Source: Candidatus Woesearchaeota archaeon (lineage in GTDB: Archaea; Nanobdellota; Nanobdellia; Woesearchaeales; UBA525). Taken from it: a stretch of 11,882 nucleotides of DNA. The DNA lies in NCBI GenBank assembly GCA_003694385.1, contig RFKA01000030.1, positions 1 to 11,882 of the forward strand. The letters run 5' to 3'. The notes beneath the pieces were generated by a model. The model was not told the origin of the DNA. It worked only from the letters and a program-made list of their open reading frames with translations, and did not search any database. Both the position numbers and the translations under genes were made by a program. Positions 3,175 through 11,882 of this stretch are shown here, piece after piece; the stretch's first letter is position 1; the number at the start of each line of letters is the position of its first letter.

Positions 3175-4356
3175 CTAGAGCGTTTCCTCAAGGTCATCGA
3201 GATCGTCAAGGCTGATGGCTTCTTCTTCCGCTTCATTAGTGATTTCTTCCTCGACGACATCCTCAGTGACCTCTACTTTTGCCGCATGAGGCGGGGGCTC
3301 AAGGGTCTCTTTTATTTGCTCTTTAAGTTCTTGTGGAGCGTCGAGTTTGTCGACCTGCGCTTCACTCTCTTTTCTGAGGCGCTCGAGCTCTTCCTCAGGG
3401 TCAATATTCCGGAAAACGAGGCCTGCAGTGAGCTCGATGCGGTCAAGAGCTTCATTCTTCTTGCAACGACCGACCACCTTGATGATCTCTCCCAGCATCT
3501 CTGTCTTCACGTCCGCAAATGCCGCGGGGTTCTCCTTGTACGCGAGTATTTCAGCATCGCTCTTCTCGAGGAGCCGCTGGCTTTGCTGTCGCCAGAACGT
3601 TGCGCGTATCGTTCCGGTACCATCATCGAGGAAGGCTGAGAGGACATAGTTCGTCTGTGGTGTGACCTCGCCGTGTTCAGCACAGACTGTTGTGTCGCCG
3701 TCGCTCGTGACGCGCTTGTTACACTCGGGGCAGACGTCGAAGAACCGGGGGTCATAGAGTTGGACGATTGTGCCGAGTATCTCAATATTCTCCTCATCGC
3801 CGGTGAGCTCCTTGATGGCTTTGCGCTCTCGCTGGGCGCGCGGAACGCCCTGGAATTCCTTAACGTGGACGCCTTCGGGGTTCACCTCTATCTTTGCATC
3901 ACTGTTCAAGTGGAGTTCTTTATAGCCACGGTTCTCTTTCACGTAGGCGTTTGAAACCCTGAGTGTATCGCCTTCCTTGAACGTGTCGAAATGCGCTGTT
4001 TGGTCGTTCCAGAGTGTCACGCGTATCTGACCAGTCTCGTCACCGAGGAAGAAGCTACCGACTTTTCCTTCACGGCCGTCCTTTGTGAACGTGCGTACTT
4101 CGAATTTCCTCGTGACCTTACCGGGGAGCGAGACGTTCCGCATCCCCGCGTAGAGGTCGCTAATCTTCGCCGCCCCCTCCTCGGCTAAGAGTTGGACGCC
4201 GAGTTCATTCGCGATGATGTGGGCCGCGCCTTGCTCGCTGATAAGGCCCGAGAGCTGCTTGAGTTTCTCGTTTATCTTCTCGCGGATCTCTCCCTCGGAG
4301 AGCCCTTTTTGGTCTTGAATTTTCTTAACGATATCAGCAGTTGGTATCTCAATCAT
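3175..4356 (-). CDS. rpa: Replication protein A, OB-fold and zinc-finger type
   Basis: RPA binds and protects single-stranded DNA in replication, recombination and repair. The 393-residue protein has an N-terminal helical region (about 1-65) containing the archaeal RPA pattern LISEQGAAHIIANELGV. A first OB fold follows at about 73-158 (VRTFTKDGREGKVGSFFLGD). A second OB fold at about 190-312 holds an inserted zinc finger with ligands C209, C212, C225 and H228 (CPEC and CAEH). A coiled, charged linker follows, then a strongly acidic tail (363-393) ending DDLDDLEETL, likely a protein-docking tail. The frame extends six codons to a TTG, but the ATG at 4356 has GAGGGG 6 nt before it. A TATA box at 4391-4398 gives it its own promoter. 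Confidence 0.95.
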   Translation of the reverse strand: MIEIPTADIVKKIQDQKGLSEGEIREKINEKLKQLSGLISEQGAAHIIANELGVQLLAEEGAAKISDLYAGMRNVSLPGKVTRKFEVRTFTKDGREGKVGSFFLGDETGQIRVTLWNDQTAHFDTFKEGDTLRVSNAYVKENRGYKELHLNSDAKIEVNPEGVHVKEFQGVPRAQRERKAIKELTGDEENIEILGTIVQLYDPRFFDVCPECNKRVTSDGDTTVCAEHGEVTPQTNYVLSAFLDDGTGTIRATFWRQQSQRLLEKSDAEILAYKENPAAFADVKTEMLGEIIKVVGRCKKNEALDRIELTAGLVFRNIDPEEELERLRKESEAQVDKLDAPQELKEQIKETLEPPPHAAKVEVTEDVVEEEITNEAEEEAISLDDLDDLEETL

Positions 4357-4390
4357 CACGAACCCCTCAGGCAAGGGATGGTTGTGGGTG

Positions 4391-4399: not shown

Positions 4400-7300
4400 T
4401 TATGCCCGGTCGTACTGCCTGCGGAGCTGTTCCTGCTTGTAGGCGGGGAGGTGGCTCCAGAGTGTATCGTCGAAATCCTTGAGGGGAGTTATGGGGAGCG
4501 AACCAGGTTGGTTGAGGATGAGAGGGATGAGTGGGGCGCTGTCTGGACAGAAGAGTTGCCAGTTCCGCACGAAGTTCATCTGGGGCGCCAATCCTTTATC
4601 ATCGCTATACGCGGGTGCTCCGACAAGGGGAAGCTCGTCATCGTCGAGGGGATGCCAGTCGCGGTCGCTCTTCCTGAGGGGCGTCACGCGTAGGCGCAGG
4701 GGCTGCTGTATGTTCGCGTTCCCCGCTCGGTCAACGGGGACGAGGTAGAGGTAGCCGCTGTAGGTCTTCCAGAAGTCGGGGCGCGCGGCGCCACGCCAGA
4801 GGCGCGGGATTTCGAGATCGTTAATATTGAAGAAGATGCAGTTGAAGGGCGAGTCATTCTCGTCGCGCACATAGCGGAGTTGGCCGACGATCTGCTGTGC
4901 ATCTCTGTTGAAGGGGTTGCTTGGCGGGGGAATGGTTCGGGGGTCTTTCATGTAGACGAGGTAGAGCGCTTGGTCGAGTTGTGGTTGGCGCAGGAGGAAG
5001 TAGCCAGTGAGGGGGTCGTAATAGGCATCGAGCGCTTGCGGGACTTCATTATAAGGGGGGTTGCACTGCGGGTTCACGACACCTGTTGGGATACCTCCAG
5101 CACAAACCCAGTAGTTGCAAGGGTTGAAGCACGCTGGTTTGGGGACTGCTCGAGCAACAAGGAGCTGGGGCGGGGTCTGCGGGGGCGGCGGAGGCCTCCG
5201 CTCCTTGTTTTCAAGCGAGAACTGCAACGGGGGAGCTTCGTCTGTGAGGTTCGCGCAGAACGCGTACTTCGTCTTGATAACTGCGCAAGTCTCGTCATGC
5301 TCGTGCGGCTCTCTGAACGTGAGCACTGCTTCTGGCCTCGTGTCTTTGTCGAAGACGAAGTCCCCGCCGACCTTGCGGAACCTGCTGCTCTTGAAGCCGC
5401 CATTGATATCTTGTGGCGCATAGTAGCGGTACGACCAGAGCAGTCCGTGCTCTGAGAGGACGAATGTGACTCGCTGAATATCTTTCTTAGGGTCGTAGTC
5501 GGCCGGTTTCTCGTCGAATGCCGCATCAAAGACCGCGTTAATATCGGTGAATCGTGGGGGAGTGCTATCAGTGAAGTGTGTGGTGAAGCGCTTCGCGGTG
5601 GCTTCTTTCGTTTCGAGCGTGAGCGTAAGCATATACTTCTCTCCTGGAGCAACGTCTGGTGGTGTGGGGAGCGGGCACGTGCAGTTCCACTGGAGGTTTT
5701 CTGCACAGTCTTCGAGGGCGAGGACGAGCTTGTCGAAGTAGGCTTGGACTGGGTCGTCACTGCATTCAACGCGATGGTGGGCGACGGCGAGACCATTGAG
5801 CTGTGTTTGGGCCGCGCCTGTCAGCTCCTGGTAGCTCTGGTTCTGTTTGGCTTCGCGTTCGAAGCTCGTGATCATCGGGTCATGGCTCAACGCCTCTCTA
5901 AGGAGGCAGCGTTCAGAATCCCTGGGGTCGTTCTCGCAGCGCTGGAGCGTCTGCCGTGCCCAGTCCATAACGTCCGCGAAGGGTGTGAGGAGGTCGGGAA
6001 CGTCAACCCAGAACGTCGGGTTCCAGATATACTCACCAATAGGCACGAGATTTTGCGACCCGGCACTCAGGGCGAGGTTCCCAGCCCCCTTCGTGCAGGG
6101 TATGCCGCCATTCCATGCTTGGCAGTAGGCGAGGACGAGCTCGACGTAGTTGAGTGTTTCGTGCTGGGGGTTCTTCTTGCGGAGCACGTCCGCTACGTCC
6201 TCCCAGCGTACATCTTCATTCCGCACATTCGTCTCCTTGATCCACTGATTAAGATTGCCTGCTCCCGCGTTGTACTCGGCGAGCGCAAACGCTATCTGGT
6301 CTTCGCGGAACGCGTGCCGCTGGAGGTAACTGCTAATGAGCTCTGCCCCGGCGTAGATGTTCCGTTTCGCGTTGAAGCGGTCATCGTTGTTCGCATTGCA
6401 GCGGCAGTCGGTATCGGTTGTCCCCGTACAGTCTGAGTTGCGGCACTGCCAGTCATTCGGCCCTGTTGGGCATTGCCAGCACGCCGTTGCGTGGGGGAGT
6501 TCCGTGAGGCCCTGCTTGTTGTTCTGCCGCGCGTAGTTTTGCGCGTTGAGGTGGTGGAGCTGCATGAGGCCTGCACAGCAGCCCGTGAAGGAGATCGCCT
6601 CTGGCTGGCCGGCGCTCTCCTGCGTGATGATGCCGAGGAGGAGGCTCTGCGGCACAGTATATTTCGTGGCGGCCCCAATAATGTACTGACCCCAGTCTAA
6701 GTCATGCATTCGTTGAAAAGTTCGAGACAACTTCTGCGAACTGGCGGAGGGGGGTGCGTTAGGAGAGAGCGAGGGCATAACGGAGGAGAGGCGTTCAGTC
6801 GGAGCTGGTCGGTTCGTCGGACTCGTCGCGTTTTCTGGAGCGGCGCCAACAAACGTGATGCCGTACTCATCACAGTATGCTGTCCGCGGGTCTGCTTGTT
6901 TCGCGCAGGTTGCTTGTGTCTCTGAAGGGCGAATGATGACATCAGAAAGGGTTTTTTTGCTGAAGAAGCAGACAGGGTTGAGGGCGTAGAGGCCGCTCAC
7001 GTCGCTGGCTTTGGGTGCGTACATGTGCGCTGTCTTCGTGATGCCCGCCTTGTCGGTGAGGACTTCGAAGTGGAGGTGGGGTGCTGCGGCGCGGGTGTCC
7101 CACGCATAACCAATAATTTGCCCTGCGCGCACCGGCTGGTTCTGGCGCACTTTAATATCCGTTGGGCGTTCATTCTTGAGGTGGAGGTAGCGCGTATAGA
7201 GGACGCGTCCGCCGGGGGTTTTTGGTGGGTGCTTGATGAGTACTGTGCCGTAAGTTGATGCTTGTGGGTTGTTGATGACGATGCCGTCGGCTGCCGCGAC

Positions 7301-8047
7301 GACTGCGCCGCCCTTTGCTGAACGGGGGGTCCTGCTTGGCAGGTCGAAGCCCATGTGCACGTCACTCACACCCACGCCCGCTCGCGGCCCAAAGCAGCTC
7401 GTGATGCGCTTGTAGTTCTCGAGAGGCCCACTTGGAGCGCGCGGCCAGCGGAGGCCCTCGACGGCGCCGAAGCTGCTCGTGAGGACCTCCCCAACTGCTT
7501 GGCCGGGCATGATGCCGCGGAGGATTGGCTCGACAGGGTAGGGCTTCTGCGCGTTGAACCTTAGTCTGAGCTGTTCCGGCAAGAATTCTGTTGTGAGAGT
7601 GAAGAATGCCGTGAAGGGTCCGAGGGGGTGCTGGTTTGTCAGGTCGCCCATGACTGGCTCGAGATTCTGGTGGAGGTGTTCAGCGGGGAGGTCGCGTGTA
7701 GGGACTGTTTTGTCGTCGAGGAGGCAGTCGTCGCGCGTCCTCCTTGACCAGAGGCTGAAGTGGTAGTAGCCACAACCGCTTTCTGCTTCGCCGCCGCTTT
7801 CTCCGAAGTAGCGGTTCTGGTCCGTGTAGAGAATATCTGCCGCTTCGGTGAATGCGGCTCTCGCTGCGCTCTCGAGATAGAAACGCTTGAGGTCTGCTCG
7901 CTGATATGCGTTGAGGAGCGCCCCTTGGTGCCGCCCAATCTCGTCGGGGAGGTTGCTGAAGCTCACGGCGAGGAGGATGAGCGCGGCCATGGCCGCAACG
8001 AGGTAGACAATGAGGAGCCCGAACAGGAAGACTTTTCCTTGCTTCAT
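4400..8047 (-). CDS. Membrane-anchored M23 peptidase / SLT lytic transglycosylase fusion, 1215 residues
   Basis: A single N-terminal helix (about 6-29, after MKQGK) should anchor the protein with the rest outside. Residues about 214-330 form an M23/LytM metallopeptidase domain with zinc ligands H231, D235 (HMGFD) and H326 and catalytic H289 and H324 (YLHL, HLHFEV). A Ser/Thr/Pro-rich linker (about 400-440) leads to a lysozyme-like SLT domain at about 453-602. This has catalytic E477 (ITQESAGQP), GLMQL (493-497) and AEYNAGAG (590-597), plus a Cys-rich insertion at 519-555. The C-terminal 455 residues hold a Pro-rich linker (950-960) and apparently beta-rich, Ig-like parts such as YLVPVDRAGNAN. 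There are 30 Cys in total. In bacteria these two domains cut peptidoglycan peptides and glycan strands; the target here is unknown. It is translationally coupled to the upstream gene (ATGA overlap) and ends the operon. Confidence 0.93.
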   Translation of the reverse strand: MKQGKVFLFGLLIVYLVAAMAALILLAVSFSNLPDEIGRHQGALLNAYQRADLKRFYLESAARAAFTEAADILYTDQNRYFGESGGEAESGCGYYHFSLWSRRTRDDCLLDDKTVPTRDLPAEHLHQNLEPVMGDLTNQHPLGPFTAFFTLTTEFLPEQLRLRFNAQKPYPVEPILRGIMPGQAVGEVLTSSFGAVEGLRWPRAPSGPLENYKRITSCFGPRAGVGVSDVHMGFDLPSRTPRSAKGGAVVAAADGIVINNPQASTYGTVLIKHPPKTPGGRVLYTRYLHLKNERPTDIKVRQNQPVRAGQIIGYAWDTRAAAPHLHFEVLTDKAGITKTAHMYAPKASDVSGLYALNPVCFFSKKTLSDVIIRPSETQATCAKQADPRTAYCDEYGITFVGAAPENATSPTNRPAPTERLSSVMPSLSPNAPPSASSQKLSRTFQRMHDLDWGQYIIGAATKYTVPQSLLLGIITQESAGQPEAISFTGCCAGLMQLHHLNAQNYARQNNKQGLTELPHATACWQCPTGPNDWQCRNSDCTGTTDTDCRCNANNDDRFNAKRNIYAGAELISSYLQRHAFREDQIAFALAEYNAGAGNLNQWIKETNVRNEDVRWEDVADVLRKKNPQHETLNYVELVLAYCQAWNGGIPCTKGAGNLALSAGSQNLVPIGEYIWNPTFWVDVPDLLTPFADVMDWARQTLQRCENDPRDSERCLLREALSHDPMITSFEREAKQNQSYQELTGAAQTQLNGLAVAHHRVECSDDPVQAYFDKLVLALEDCAENLQWNCTCPLPTPPDVAPGEKYMLTLTLETKEATAKRFTTHFTDSTPPRFTDINAVFDAAFDEKPADYDPKKDIQRVTFVLSEHGLLWSYRYYAPQDINGGFKSSRFRKVGGDFVFDKDTRPEAVLTFREPHEHDETCAVIKTKYAFCANLTDEAPPLQFSLENKERRPPPPPQTPPQLLVARAVPKPACFNPCNYWVCAGGIPTGVVNPQCNPPYNEVPQALDAYYDPLTGYFLLRQPQLDQALYLVYMKDPRTIPPPSNPFNRDAQQIVGQLRYVRDENDSPFNCIFFNINDLEIPRLWRGAARPDFWKTYSGYLYLVPVDRAGNANIQQPLRLRVTPLRKSDRDWHPLDDDELPLVGAPAYSDDKGLAPQMNFVRNWQLFCPDSAPLIPLILNQPGSLPITPLKDFDDTLWSHLPAYKQEQLRRQYDRA

Positions 8048-8850
8048 TCGTCGTACCTCCCAATGTAGTTGATCTCAATCGTGACCACGTCTGACTCGTC
8101 AGCGATGAAGGTCTTCGCTTGGGCAAAGGGAAGGTTTTCGAGTTGTGCTCGTGCTAAGCGTTGCTCTGCTTTTCGCATCTGGTAGCGCCATTCACCTACT
8201 ACCGCACCTCCTAGTAAACTCGACTCACCAACGAGGTTATTGTACTGGAGGTAGTGGAGACCATCCATTATGGCTTTTGGGTCGCCACGCATCTTGGCAT
8301 GACCAAGGGTAAACTCTGCCCGAGAGCTTTTTACGTGCACGGAGAAGAGATTCCCGACGACAAAGCTCCTGAAGAACGCGAAGGTGAGCCGGTGAACAAT
8401 ATGGCAGAGCCTGCTCTGTGCATCATCGCCAAGGATGGGTGGTGCGGTTGGTAAAGGGGCGAGCTCTTCTTCAGTGCCGAGTTTCCCCTTGTCTTCGTCG
8501 CTCAGCCAAGCAATGCATCGCTCATCGTCGAGTAGTTTGACAAGCGCTTCCTCCATCGTGAGGTCTTGGAGTCCCTGCGTGTTCAGTCTTCCAAGATTCT
8601 CAAGGCCGTTCTCGTGGCGCGCAGCAAAATCGGCGAGTGGCTGCGAGAGGCGTTGACGCAGGTACGCATTCATGACGAAATCAGCAGTGAGTGAACCTGC
8701 TTGGAATGCAAAGTCGAGTTTCCCGTCTCGGTTGCCAAGATGATCTCTCTGGAGGACGAAGAAGCCGAAGATGATGAGGGCGACGAAGAAGAGCACGAAG
8801 AGGACGATGATGTCGTTGATGTTGATGACGCCGCGACGGTCGTTACGCAT
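8044..8850 (-). CDS. Membrane-anchored protein of unknown function, 268 residues
   Basis: I do not recognise the family. Residues 1-7 (MRNDRRG) are basic, then a strongly hydrophobic helix spans about 14-33, followed by a soluble, helix-rich part, so an N-in, C-out single-pass protein is likely. R6-G7-V8-I9 fits the loose archaeal class III (prepilin peptidase) pattern just before the hydrophobic stretch, though N10, N12 and D13 follow the putative cut. A helical middle (about 85-130) carries many acidic residues, and only two Cys occur (112, 149). A GGAG ribosome binding site precedes the ATG. The start overlaps the upstream gene by 8 nt and the stop overlaps the M23/SLT gene by 4 nt, so it almost certainly works with them. 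A subunit of the same envelope assembly is inferred. Confidence 0.85.
   Translation of the reverse strand: MRNDRRGVININDIIVLFVLFFVALIIFGFFVLQRDHLGNRDGKLDFAFQAGSLTADFVMNAYLRQRLSQPLADFAARHENGLENLGRLNTQGLQDLTMEEALVKLLDDERCIAWLSDEDKGKLGTEEELAPLPTAPPILGDDAQSRLCHIVHRLTFAFFRSFVVGNLFSVHVKSSRAEFTLGHAKMRGDPKAIMDGLHYLQYNNLVGESSLLGGAVVGEWRYQMRKAEQRLARAQLENLPFAQAKTFIADESDVVTIEINYIGRYDE
8055..8061 (-). promoter_or_regulatory. Ribosome binding site of the M23/SLT gene inside the upstream gene
   Basis: Minus-strand GGGAGGT lies within the last codons of the 268-residue gene, 7 nt before the ATG at 8047. Together with the ATGA start/stop overlap it indicates efficient re-initiation and near-equal production of the two proteins. 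Confidence 0.65.
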
Positions 8851-9406
8851 ACACTCTCCTCACTACTTCGATGTCAAGCCACTTGGTCGTGTCGGTGTAC
8901 TCTTTCGTTCCTTGGTTATACGAGCGGACCGTCACGGGGAAGACGTGCCGCTTGTAAAGCGCCCCGCCAGCCATTGAGAGTCCTGCCCGGCCGAAAGAGG
9001 CGTAGGCGTCGTACACCGGCTTGTGATGGTAAGCCTCCCGCACAGGAGTCCTATTGATGTCTTGCGCCCGGTTATAGAGCCTGATGCGCGCGCCGTAGCG
9101 CTCCGCCCCGGGGTACTCTGTGTAGGGGTCTTCGTTCTCGAGTTGCGTCGTCGTGATGCGCGCCTCATCAATGACCCATGGCACTGGGTGTGCTCCTTTG
9201 GGGTCATCGACTGGGTCACGATAGAGGATGCCGTGCGGCCCGGCGAGGAGACGGTACATGTAGATGTCGAGCTCCATCTCCTTCGAGGTGGTCGTCGTCT
9301 CGGTCACCATCCATATCTGGAGCAAGAGGAATATCATGAGCGCGGCTGCGATGATGAGCCGGGCAACCCATGGGAAGACTTCACCGAGTACTGCGCGTTT
9401 GTTCAT
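8843..9406 (-). CDS. Membrane-anchored pseudopilin-like protein, 187 residues
   Basis: The protein has a short basic start (MNKR), a hydrophobic helix at about 15-33 and an extracellular part beginning with MELDIYMYRLLAGPHGILYR. I recall small single-pass proteins from DPANN archaea with the same plan: an 'LL..P.GI.Y.DP' motif after the helix, a middle AR.RLYN strand, and a GxxGLSMAGG-type segment before a final beta strand. Function is not known. R4-A5-V6-L7 fits the class III signal pattern, but R16 inside the helix is atypical of pilins. No Shine-Dalgarno sequence precedes the ATG; translation probably depends on the ATGA overlap with the upstream gene. A minor-pilin or pseudopilin role is inference. 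Confidence 0.83.
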   Translation of the reverse strand: MNKRAVLGEVFPWVARLIIAAALMIFLLLQIWMVTETTTTSKEMELDIYMYRLLAGPHGILYRDPVDDPKGAHPVPWVIDEARITTTQLENEDPYTEYPGAERYGARIRLYNRAQDINRTPVREAYHHKPVYDAYASFGRAGLSMAGGALYKRHVFPVTVRSYNQGTKEYTDTTKWLDIEVVRRVYA

Positions 9407-10269
9407 GTTTCGAGGAAAGCGGCGACTGCCGCGCTCACTGCTTGTGCAGTGCTATTGATGCGGAGTTCTTCGTCTGATGGGGGGAAGATGAGGCTGACGT
9501 GAATGCCACTAGTGACGGGCCCGGGGCCTTGTGTGAGGTTGTAGAAAGGCTTGAGCGAGGCGCGCAAGAGGCAGCCGAGGTCTTCCGAGAGGTCTGCCTG
9601 CGGGCCTCCCCCAATGGCGATGCGCGCCTGGTCCGCGAATTGTCGCACATCAAGGCGGAGTATGTAGCGGTGCACATTGATGGTGGGGAAGCCGAGCGGG
9701 CCAGGGCTAATGACGGGTGGCGCGAGGAGGCCATCATCATTGAGTTGTTTTCGTACTTGGTTCGCGATTGCGCCGGCGCCCGTGACGAACACTGACGTGT
9801 CTTTTTTCGGGATGGCGTTCTCTGCGCCTGCACAGGCAGGCCCGGGGTTGTTGTCGAAACGCACTTGGCTCGGGTTACGGTTGATCGTGATGCTGAACGG
9901 CTGGTAGAGCGTGTCGGGAAGCACCTCGAGACGGGGCGTTGCTTGGGGATGCGGCGAGCCATAGTATTGCAGTACCCTCCAGAGTATCCTGTCGACGCTC
10001 CCATTGGTTTTCTGCGCGCTCAAGCGGACATAGTGAGGGCTAAAATCAAAGATGAATTCGTCTTGTGGTCTGATCGAGCGGTAGTTAAGGGTGACGCTGC
10101 CGCGCGAGGCCATCACGGTATCGACGGTTGTGCCCAGGTCCTTCGCGTAGAAGCGGAGGAAGTACTGCGTTGGGTCGCTGTTATTGATTGCTGCAAGGAA
10201 GAAGGCGAGCCCTATGAGAACGAGCATCACGGCCTGCAGAATCATATCCTGAACATTCTCCCCTGCCAC
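9403..10269 (-). CDS. Membrane-anchored protein of unknown function with GTG start, 288 residues
   Basis: One hydrophobic helix lies at about 9-27. Unlike its neighbours, the N-terminus (MAGENVQD) is acidic, so topology is less certain. The helix is followed by TQYFLRFYAKDLGTTVDTVM and ASRGSVTLNY, a pattern I recall from other DPANN surface clusters. The end of the protein (about 253-286, with FPPSDEEL and a final Ala-rich helix) weakly recalls the last segment of Amidase_3 N-acetylmuramoyl-L-alanine amidases. The zinc-ligand motifs of that family (HGG, conserved Glu, SIHAN) are absent, so any such domain would be inactive. The start is GTG. A TATA box at 10290-10297 would place transcription almost exactly at this codon. 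The 3' end overlaps the next gene by 4 nt. Confidence 0.83.
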   Translation of the reverse strand: MAGENVQDMILQAVMLVLIGLAFFLAAINNSDPTQYFLRFYAKDLGTTVDTVMASRGSVTLNYRSIRPQDEFIFDFSPHYVRLSAQKTNGSVDRILWRVLQYYGSPHPQATPRLEVLPDTLYQPFSITINRNPSQVRFDNNPGPACAGAENAIPKKDTSVFVTGAGAIANQVRKQLNDDGLLAPPVISPGPLGFPTINVHRYILRLDVRQFADQARIAIGGGPQADLSEDLGCLLRASLKPFYNLTQGPGPVTSGIHVSLIFPPSDEELRINSTAQAVSAAVAAFLET

Positions 10270-10302: not shown

Positions 10303-11115
10303 TTACTGCGCAAGCCAACTCCCCGTGAGGCACACATCTGCCGGGCAGGGTCGCGCTGGATCCTTACTGATGCGGAAAATGAGTTCTTTCTTTTGTGCAC
10401 CTTGCTGCCGCGAGTTCTCGACGGCCTGCACTGCAGTGTTGTAGTCATTGTTCACAGGCATTGAAATAAATAATGAGCTTTGCTGATCACCATCGGGTGG
10501 GCGAATAACCCTGCACTCACTGACGCCGTCAATAATCTGTGTTGCAGCCTCGTCAACCTGCCCCAGGGGCAATTCGGGAAGTGCCCGAGAGAAACAGAGG
10601 CAGGGCAAGAGAACATCTTTGCCTTTTTCGTTTACTGTACAGTGCTCCTCCCAGAAATCCATGAGGCAAATCTGGTCCAGCGCATTGCAACCCATTTTCT
10701 GCGAAGCGGCCACTTCCAAACCAAGCGAAGTGACTTTTCCTGAGATTACGCTCGCACCCCCTGCCGCCCCGACTGGAGGCTGTGGATCACTAAAGGATAC
10801 TCGGAGCACTCCATTAACTTCCATTTGTGATATCGCAAAGAAAACCCCCTTGTATTTCTTCCGCCCTTCGAAGCGAGCAAGAGGAGCGAGGTCAAAGAAT
10901 TGGTCGCGATGGGTTGCTCCGGGTTCATCAATGACGCTCTGCATTAGGTCAGCGACGAGCCTGAATTCGTTGCGTGCCTTCTTGTCGACGCCGTGCAGGC
11001 TCTTCCAAAAAGCTACCGCCACGAGGAGTATGCTGACGACGACGAGGATGCTCAGGACGATGTCGACGAGTTTCTGTCCACCATAAGCGACGTCTCCACG
11101 CTTGCGGCGCCTCAT
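10303..11115 (-). CDS. Membrane-anchored Cys-rich protein of unknown function, 270 residues
   Basis: A strongly basic start (MRRRKRGD) precedes a hydrophobic helix at about 17-37, so an N-in orientation with an external C-terminal part of some 230 residues is likely. R6-G7-D8-V9 fits the class III signal pattern, though K15 and D18 follow. The outer part has eight Cys (143, 150, 159, 172, 174, 201, 257, 262), consistent with up to four disulfides. I do not recognise the family. The ATG has GAGGGG 6 nt upstream and overlaps the stop of the preceding gene (ATGA). The first residues after the helix (VDKKARNEFRLVADLMQSV) are helical, as in pilin-like stalks. A role as an envelope subunit alongside its neighbours is inferred. 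Confidence 0.84.
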   Translation of the reverse strand: MRRRKRGDVAYGGQKLVDIVLSILVVVSILLVAVAFWKSLHGVDKKARNEFRLVADLMQSVIDEPGATHRDQFFDLAPLARFEGRKKYKGVFFAISQMEVNGVLRVSFSDPQPPVGAAGGASVISGKVTSLGLEVAASQKMGCNALDQICLMDFWEEHCTVNEKGKDVLLPCLCFSRALPELPLGQVDEAATQIIDGVSECRVIRPPDGDQQSSLFISMPVNNDYNTAVQAVENSRQQGAQKKELIFRISKDPARPCPADVCLTGSWLAQ

Positions 11116-11882
11116 TGTTTCCCCTCGAGGTGTTTTGAGATGGGCAACACGAAGGGCCCAAGAGAGTATTGGTCACCGATATGGCTCATGCCTTGTCCCG
11201 CGGGCCGCCACCACGAGCTCTCTACAGTGAAGGTGGCTTCGACCGGGCTCTTATCTGCTGCGTCCTGCGGTGCGAGAAGCTGGGGATTACCGAGTTTCTT
11301 CGCCCATTCCTGCGGCGTGAAAGGCTTCGCGACCGTGACGAAACCATAGAGGGTGTCGGTGTTCTCACAGTTGTACTCCGCAGGCATCCCTTTCTGCGCA
11401 ACGGTCTGTGGCGTGATACCTTCAAAGAGGGTGAGGTATTCCTGGCGTTGCCCGTGAGCCAGGCCGATCTTCTCGAGGTAGCAGAACGTGGAGTATGGCT
11501 GCTTGTTCCCGTAGAATGGAGGTGCGGAGCTGAGCGGCTTGTACTTGAAGGTCATCTTCACATTCTTAGGGATGCCTGAAGGAGGTATGACTTTAATGCG
11601 GGGTCCTTCGTAGGTCTGACCTATAACTTCATCCGTCACTGTTTCAACAAAGAACTCCTTATAGGGTTCGTACCCTTCTTCGTACTCGATTACGAAAGCC
11701 TGGTATGGACGATTGTTGCACTCTGGGACTGGCGGCTTCGTGACGCCAGCATCGGGAAGGAGCGCCCCCTCACCACCTCCCAAAGTATAGTCAGAGATAC
11801 GGCACACACCAAATATCCTGAACGTTGCTTGGTGGGCGCCGCTGAGCTCGAGGAGCACCGTGCCTTCCGGGTAGTACTCGTC
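11112..11882 (-). CDS. Partial extracellular-type protein of unknown function (N-terminus beyond the window)
   Basis: The frame is open to the window edge; the visible part has about 256 residues, starting DEYYPEGTVLLELSG. A GTG at 11858 exists, but the codons upstream of it read like continuing protein, so I treat the gene as truncated by the window. The visible part has no hydrophobic segment. It looks beta-rich, with four Cys and repeated Tyr/Phe-Glu patterns (IEYEEGYEPYKEFF). I do not recognise the family. Its stop overlaps the start of the next gene (ATGA), so it belongs to the surface cluster, and by analogy its missing N-terminus may carry a membrane helix. Function is unknown. Confidence 0.8.
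   Translation of the reverse strand, partial: DEYYPEGTVLLELSGAHQATFRIFGVCRISDYTLGGGEGALLPDAGVTKPPVPECNNRPYQAFVIEYEEGYEPYKEFFVETVTDEVIGQTYEGPRIKVIPPSGIPKNVKMTFKYKPLSSAPPFYGNKQPYSTFCYLEKIGLAHGQRQEYLTLFEGITPQTVAQKGMPAEYNCENTDTLYGFVTVAKPFTPQEWAKKLGNPQLLAPQDAADKSPVEATFTVESSWWRPAGQGMSHIGDQYSLGPFVLPISKHLEGKQ

What the first reader, a model, noticed from the sequence alone, without database searches (positions are those of the whole stretch)
4400..8047. Archaeal protein combining an apparently intact M23 endopeptidase and SLT lytic transglycosylase on one membrane anchor
Seen: all key residues of both enzyme families (H231, D235, H289, H324, H326; E477, GLMQL, AEYNAG) in one protein, next to clearly archaeal genes. 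Known: both families act on bacterial peptidoglycan, which archaea are not known to make; pseudomurein has different glycan linkages and peptides. Inference: the protein may attack bacterial walls (competition, predation or symbiosis), or the fold may be reused on another polymer. Pairing a peptide cutter with a glycan cutter resembles modules of conjugation machines and phage tails.
Basis: partly seen in the sequence, partly recalled or inferred. Interest (0 to 1): 0.85.

Follow-up and report, generated by a model that had tools for sequence, protein, structure and literature searches.

The report
Archaeal pilin-like operon with wall-cutting enzymes
A tiny archaeon carries a conserved set of pilin-like surface genes ending in a protein with two enzymes that cut bacterial cell walls, and relatives carry other wall-cutting enzymes at the same spot, which suggests a surface device for attacking or opening bacteria.

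Summary
Observation confirmed. The 1215-aa protein has M23 and SLT domains; H231, D235, H289, H324, H326 and E477 are invariant in 14 aligned proteins, window included. A chimera is very unlikely: RPA lies directly downstream and follows the operon in 53 of 82 loci.

The protein is the last gene of a conserved operon of single-TM, pilin-like proteins. Markers u2 and u3 occur in 82 and 71 of 97 genomes of the order. u3 has an amidase_3 fold, with the metal-site motif kept in some relatives and absent in the window. The terminal gene keeps its N-domain in 75 of 82 loci but its enzyme varies: M23, SLT, Amidase_2, YkuD, M74, M15/VanY, 3D; at least 47 of 82 loci carry one. These unrelated folds share peptidoglycan as substrate (established knowledge), and PBP transpeptidases occur in 3 of 97 genomes, not this one. 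Foreign bacterial wall is the likely target.

Murein-transglycosylase proteins of Woesearchaeota were already published; my nine literature searches did not show this operon. Filament assembly and attack on bacteria are inference.

The parts
4400..8047 (-). Terminal operon gene: N-terminal TM + conserved N-domain + M23 + SLT + C-terminal region (1215 aa)
7448..8047 (-). TM helix and conserved N-domain (residues about 1-200), shared with terminal genes across the order
7043..7405 (-). M23 endopeptidase domain (residues 215-335; H231, D235, H289, H324, H326)
6098..6700 (-). SLT/GH23 lytic transglycosylase domain (residues about 450-650; E477, Q496, Y592)
4403..6070 (-). C-terminal region of unknown function (residues 660-1215) with invariant cysteines; some relatives have weak fn3 matches (two of the three terminal proteins scanned, both under the cut-off; 4 of 45 and 1 of 48 downstream proteins at E 0.001)
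8044..8850 (-). u1, single N-terminal TM, 4-nt overlap with the terminal gene
8843..9406 (-). u2, single N-terminal TM; operon marker found in 82 of 97 genomes of the order
9403..10269 (-). u3, single N-terminal TM; homologues in 71 of 97 genomes
9406..9810 (-). u3 C-terminal domain (residues 154-288): amidase_3 fold by model, without the DPGHG-type metal motif
10303..11115 (-). u4, single N-terminal TM, conserved operon member
11112..11882 (-). u5, cut by the contig end; no homologue found
3175..4374 (-). RPA/OB-fold gene directly downstream; within six same-strand genes of u2 in 53 of 82 loci

Best explanation
The protein is the enzymatic end piece of a conserved, chromosomally inherited surface apparatus of Woesearchaeota-type DPANN archaea. 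The operon encodes large Ig-repeat proteins (seen in relatives), a series of single-TM pilin-like proteins, a membrane-anchored amidase_3-fold protein (u3) and a terminal protein whose anchor/N-domain is constant and whose enzyme module is exchangeable among peptidoglycan-acting folds. In the window the terminal protein pairs an M23 endopeptidase (peptide cutter) with an SLT transglycosylase (glycan cutter). On contact with a bacterium the apparatus would hold these enzymes against the foreign wall and open it locally, for attachment, feeding or symbiosis. Shown: domains, conserved catalytic residues, operon conservation, enzyme exchange, scarcity of PBP transpeptidases. Inferred: assembly as a type IV/Tad-like filament or patch, contact action, and a bacterial target in nature.
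Against: No assay and no imaging. In 35 of 82 loci I found no wall enzyme (22 of the 42 first negatives were not rescanned one by one). The window's u3 lacks the metal motif. T2SSE/T2SSF lie elsewhere in the genomes, and prepilin peptidase was not searched. TadE/G and TadF matches are marginal (E 0.015 in one protein; 0.11 in 1 of 23 u2 members). The window's u1, u2, u3 and u4 have no Pfam family. The K/R-G/A start was found in only 3 of the window's 6 operon genes (52 of 62 over five operons). Both structure models have low mean confidence (59.7 and 62.3). No host is known for this archaeon.
Confidence: 0.62

Rival explanations
1. Secreted or surface-tethered bacteriolytic weapon without any filament: each operon protein stays in the membrane and the hydrolases act as nearby wall cutters for competition or nutrition.
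For: Archaeal peptidoglycan hydrolases that kill bacteria are published (PMC12352652, passages). A single N-terminal TM could be a plain anchor. The Tad similarity is marginal.
Against: The conserved order of several pilin-like genes with the N-domain protein suggests a joint assembly rather than a lone enzyme.
Confidence: 0.22
2. Envelope-penetration part of a DNA or protein transfer machine (VirB1/PrgK-like), with hydrolases opening the recipient wall for conjugation-like transfer.
For: Monoderm VirB1 proteins join SLT with a second wall-cutting domain, and M23 occurs in some Patescibacteria VirB1 homologues (PMC12102498, passages). RPA/RadA neighbours are DNA-processing genes. Isolated weak matches: TraQ_transposon 3.7e-4 in 1 of 48 downstream proteins, TrbH 0.049 in one terminal protein, T4SS_pilin 0.065 in one u3.
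Against: No T4SS family over its cut-off among 20 Pfam-scanned proteins, 16 of them from the operons of two relatives. RPA/RadA are ordinary housekeeping genes. I did not search for VirB4 in the genomes.
Confidence: 0.08
3. The enzymes act on the archaeon's own envelope or on a non-murein polymer, the folds being reused.
For: The substrate is untested; the window's u3 lacks the metal motif, so one fold seems already repurposed. Some M23 domains have D in place of H326 (6 of 23).
Against: Several unrelated folds that share peptidoglycan as substrate occupy the same slot, and M23 and SLT keep their catalytic residues. PBP transpeptidases in 3 of 97 genomes.
Confidence: 0.08

Closest known systems
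Large murein-like lytic transglycosylase proteins of Woesearchaeota/Pacearchaeota (fam00969, module 98; Castelle 2021, PMC8204110, abstract and passages)
   Same: Same archaeal group, transglycosylase domain, large extracellular protein, proposed bacterial wall target.
   Different: The words M23 and pilin do not occur in its main text, and the passages I read describe no operon, exchange slot or amidase-fold neighbour. Whether this protein belongs to fam00969 could not be checked (supplements not open to me).
Archaeal peptidoglycan hydrolases that kill bacteria (Strock 2025, PMC12352652, passages)
   Same: Archaeal wall hydrolases, prominent in Nanoarchaeota, some with M23; by its title and abstract shown to kill bacteria.
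   Different: The passages concern modular proteins with a wall-binding and a catalytic domain and concentrate on haloarchaeal zoocin A homologues. Here the protein is membrane-anchored and ends a pilin-like operon.
Myxococcus Kil Tad pilus with interchangeable tips (Herrou 2025, PMC12075869, abstract and passages)
   Same: Pilin-like proteins with variable exposed domains, used against bacteria on contact.
   Different: Bacterial; 'peptidoglycan' and 'hydrolase' occur nowhere in its main text. Homology of u1-u4 to TadE/F/G is not shown here.
Monoderm T4SS wall hydrolases, VirB1-like two-domain proteins (PMC12102498, passages; PrgK recalled)
   Same: One protein combining SLT with another wall-cutting domain.
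   Different: No T4SS family over its cut-off beside the operon in the proteins scanned.

Membership tests
Peptidase family M23 | Pfam profile and HxxxD / H / HxH residues | tested here: met
Peptidase family M23 | Zinc-dependent peptidase activity on murein | not testable with these tools
   needs an assay
SLT / GH23 lytic transglycosylase | Pfam profile, catalytic Glu, lysozyme-like fold | tested here: met
SLT / GH23 lytic transglycosylase | Activity on murein glycan | not testable with these tools
   needs an assay
Amidase_3 (window u3) | Fold | tested here: met
Amidase_3 (window u3) | DPGHG-type metal motif and Pfam profile | tested here: not met
   No such motif in the window u3 and no Pfam hit; 5 of 10 aligned u3 relatives keep DPGHG. 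So the window u3 is a relative of the fold, not filed as an amidase
Type IV filament / Tad pilus | Pilin-like N-termini: one early hydrophobic helix after a positively charged start | tested here: met
   Early TM in 58 of 62 listed genes of five operons, 5 of 6 in the window (the sixth is truncated); K/R-G/A before it in 52 of 62, 3 of 6 in the window. This feature alone is not specific
Type IV filament / Tad pilus | Sequence homology of u1-u4 to known pilins | tested here: inconclusive
   Only TadF 0.11 in 1 of 23 u2 members and TadE/G 0.015 in one operon protein
Type IV filament / Tad pilus | Assembly ATPase and TadC-like membrane protein | tested here: inconclusive
   T2SSE and T2SSF in 15 of 15 genomes, none at the operon coordinates
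Type IV filament / Tad pilus | Prepilin peptidase | not tested
T4SS hydrolase (VirB1/PrgK-like) | Linked to T4SS genes such as VirB4 | tested here: inconclusive
   No T4SS family over cut-off in 20 Pfam-scanned proteins; weak isolated TraQ, TrbH and T4SS_pilin matches; VirB4 not searched in the genomes

The most novel reading that the evidence does not exclude
Woesearchaeota-type archaea share an ancestral, previously undescribed wall-breaching nanomachine: a pilin-like filament or patch with giant Ig-repeat adhesins and an exchangeable peptidoglycan-enzyme head, by which archaea without murein attach to or feed on bacteria. The diversity of the head would reflect the wall chemistry of each lineage's bacterial host.
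Probability: 0.42. Interest if true: 0.92.

Novelty: new variant of a known kind. Interest (0 to 1): 0.8.

Why it matters
The hosts and way of life of most DPANN archaea are unknown. A conserved operon whose end gene carries different peptidoglycan enzymes in different lineages points to bacteria as partners or prey of this large archaeal group, and makes that testable: the enzyme type in each genome predicts a wall-cleavage activity, and the operon gives markers for imaging and expression studies. It also suggests that enzyme-headed contact devices, known from phages and in a pilus form from predatory bacteria, may exist in archaea.

Tried and rejected
Chimera or contamination: rejected. RPA follows the operon within six same-strand genes in 53 of 82 loci; in the same-genus relative G001 (L026, on a 191-kb contig) the terminal gene is followed by RPA and, recognised by eye from their N-termini, RadA-, TRAM- and LigT-like genes.

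Viral origin: one scan of viral contigs with the family alignment found 28 pattern matches, none encoding a relative. This is absence in one collection only.

Conjugation module: little support in the scanned proteins, but VirB4 was not searched.

u5 identity: no homologue found by iterative search of the loci then held, no Pfam hit, no match to the G001 neighbour.

u2 and u3 profiles against PDB sequences: no match up to E 1 for either. Amidase homology of u3 came from relatives and from the fold. The profile comparison between the window-family u3 and the amidase-bearing u3 group aligned only their N-terminal 150 residues or so, so for the window the C-terminal relation rests on the model.

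A regex search for further enzyme motifs found one hit only and was replaced by Pfam scans.

Not done: trees of M23/SLT against bacteria, active-site distances, prepilin peptidase and VirB4 searches, murein-synthesis genes other than PBP transpeptidase.

Literature: the nine searches listed no paper that I recognised as describing this operon; several returned far more papers than were listed, most subscription papers and all preprints are not held, and supplements could not be opened.

Full report

2. The genome. The window is a whole contig (C36) of an 890-kb genome in 130 contigs, 86.7% complete. The flanks are archaeal: S2, LigT, TRAM, Rad51/RadA and RPA-type families. RPA also follows the terminal gene in G001, with RadA-, TRAM- and LigT-like genes recognised by eye further on. 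A chimera is therefore very unlikely.

3. The operon. Upstream lie u1 to u4, each with one N-terminal TM; u5 is cut by the contig end. Four of the five gene junctions overlap by 4-8 nt. Iterative profiles on the fetched loci found u2 and u3 next to the same terminal gene repeatedly. A census of 97 genomes of the order (this one included) found u3 in 71 and u2 in 82; in 237 genomes of 80% or more completeness drawn from the phylum, u2 is in 167. RPA lies within six same-strand genes downstream of u2 in 53 of 82 loci; some of the rest reach a contig end. Further upstream, relatives show 80-95-aa single-TM genes, often in tandem, and giant proteins of 1000-5400 aa; all three of those with 1686-2531 aa that I scanned have Big_13 Ig-like domains over the cut-off, the 1008-aa one does not. 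Of 62 operon genes listed from five operons, 58 start with an early hydrophobic helix and 52 have a K/R-G/A-type start before it; in the window the counts are 5 and 3 of 6. Profile matches to Tad pilins are marginal.

5. The terminal gene is an enzyme-exchange slot. A profile of the N-domain finds a matching protein downstream of u2 in 75 of 82 loci. Using four Pfam families, 40 of 82 loci have a wall-enzyme domain within 7 kb downstream on the same strand: M23 15, SLT 10, M23-SLT 7, Amidase_2-M23-SLT 3 (all in the window's own family), Amidase_2 3, Amidase_2-SLT 1, M23-Amidase_3 1; 42 have none. This count goes by distance, so a few domains may lie on the next gene. Among the 42, 20 N-domain proteins were rescanned: 7 carry YkuD, M74, 3D, M15 (two), M15/VanY or SLT over the cut-off, 2 have weaker matches (VanY/M15, NlpC/P60), 11 have none. 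The other 22 were not rescanned singly. Two batch scans of 45 and 48 downstream proteins also list NlpC/P60, CHAP, a polysaccharide deacetylase and a lysozyme-like domain, each in one or two proteins, together with plainly unrelated neighbours such as MCM, SufBD and XPG; I do not know which of those rare hits lie on N-domain proteins.

6. Is the association real? The first 23 u2 loci were mostly fetched because they resembled the M23-SLT protein, so they are biased, and 20 of the 23 sequences of the u2 model come from them. In the 59 other loci, found through the u2 model, 22 have a downstream wall-enzyme domain, and the operon holds 15 of 45 M23 loci (0.14 expected), 8 of 69 SLT (0.22), 4 of 14 Amidase_2 (0.04) and 11 of 15 Amidase_3 (0.05) of the genomes outside the first 23. 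Genome sizes are rounded, related genomes are not independent, and a few of the 59 genomes had also matched the first protein search.

7. Function. These folds are unrelated and have peptidoglycan as their shared substrate (established knowledge of the families); their presence in turn at one slot is the strongest available evidence on the substrate. PBP transpeptidases are in 3 of 97 genomes and not in this one, while 10 of 14 control genomes have them, so self-murein is improbable; other murein-synthesis genes were not searched. The target is then most likely a bacterial neighbour. T2SSE and T2SSF genes occur in all 15 genomes tested, away from the operon, so a pilus motor could exist, but linkage, prepilin peptidase and filament assembly are unproven. 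I favour a contact apparatus that holds wall cutters against bacteria (0.62), over a tethered weapon without filament (0.22), a transfer machine (0.08; weak TraQ, TrbH and T4SS_pilin matches are its only sequence support) and another polymer (0.08).

8. What was known. Castelle 2021 (abstract and passages) reported large murein-transglycosylase proteins in Woesearchaeota and Pacearchaeota and suggested bacterial hosts. Vigneron 2022 (passages) proposed predation from such enzymes together with a pore-forming toxin. Strock 2025 (passages) reports archaeal wall hydrolases that kill bacteria and finds homologues prominent in Nanoarchaeota. Two further papers mention such enzymes in DPANN (passages; the second found none in its own chimney genomes). 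The nearest mechanistic parallel is the Myxococcus Kil Tad pilus with interchangeable tips (abstract and passages). None of the passages I read describes the operon, the amidase-fold u3 or the exchange slot; I did not read full texts or supplements.

9. Verdict. The protein alone would be a new member of a known kind. The conserved operon with an exchangeable enzyme end is, as far as my searches reach, a new variant, and it makes the question of bacterial hosts of these archaea testable.

Noticed in passing
L044:6720-8276 and 8273-10267 (-) (G000:C84): Two adjacent SLT-domain genes in the window's own genome, on another contig than the operon (E 6.8e-25 and 1.9e-24).
   Followed up: partly
L045:2579-3718 (-) (G000:C51): A further protein of the same genome with SLT and a LysM domain.
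   Followed up: partly
L042:7850-10417, L047:8593-12714, L054:7851-11072, L055:9253-12378: A second type of locus in relatives: multi-TM proteins matched by the M23-SLT query, followed by lipoprotein-like genes; in three of them (not L054) a single-TM gene precedes.
   Followed up: no
P0013 (Woesearchaeota protein, 1538 aa): A homologue with an L,D-transpeptidase (YkuD) domain listed between M23 and SLT.
   Followed up: no
G055:C263:4153-6258 (-): M23 and PBP transpeptidase matches that appear to lie in one 1207-aa open frame of a relative.
   Followed up: no
L057:1-16149, L058:1159-13807, L059:1-7200, L060:702-12692: Giant surface-type proteins (about 1700-5400 aa) on the 5' side of the operon; Ig-like domains in the three scanned (L058, L059).
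   Followed up: partly
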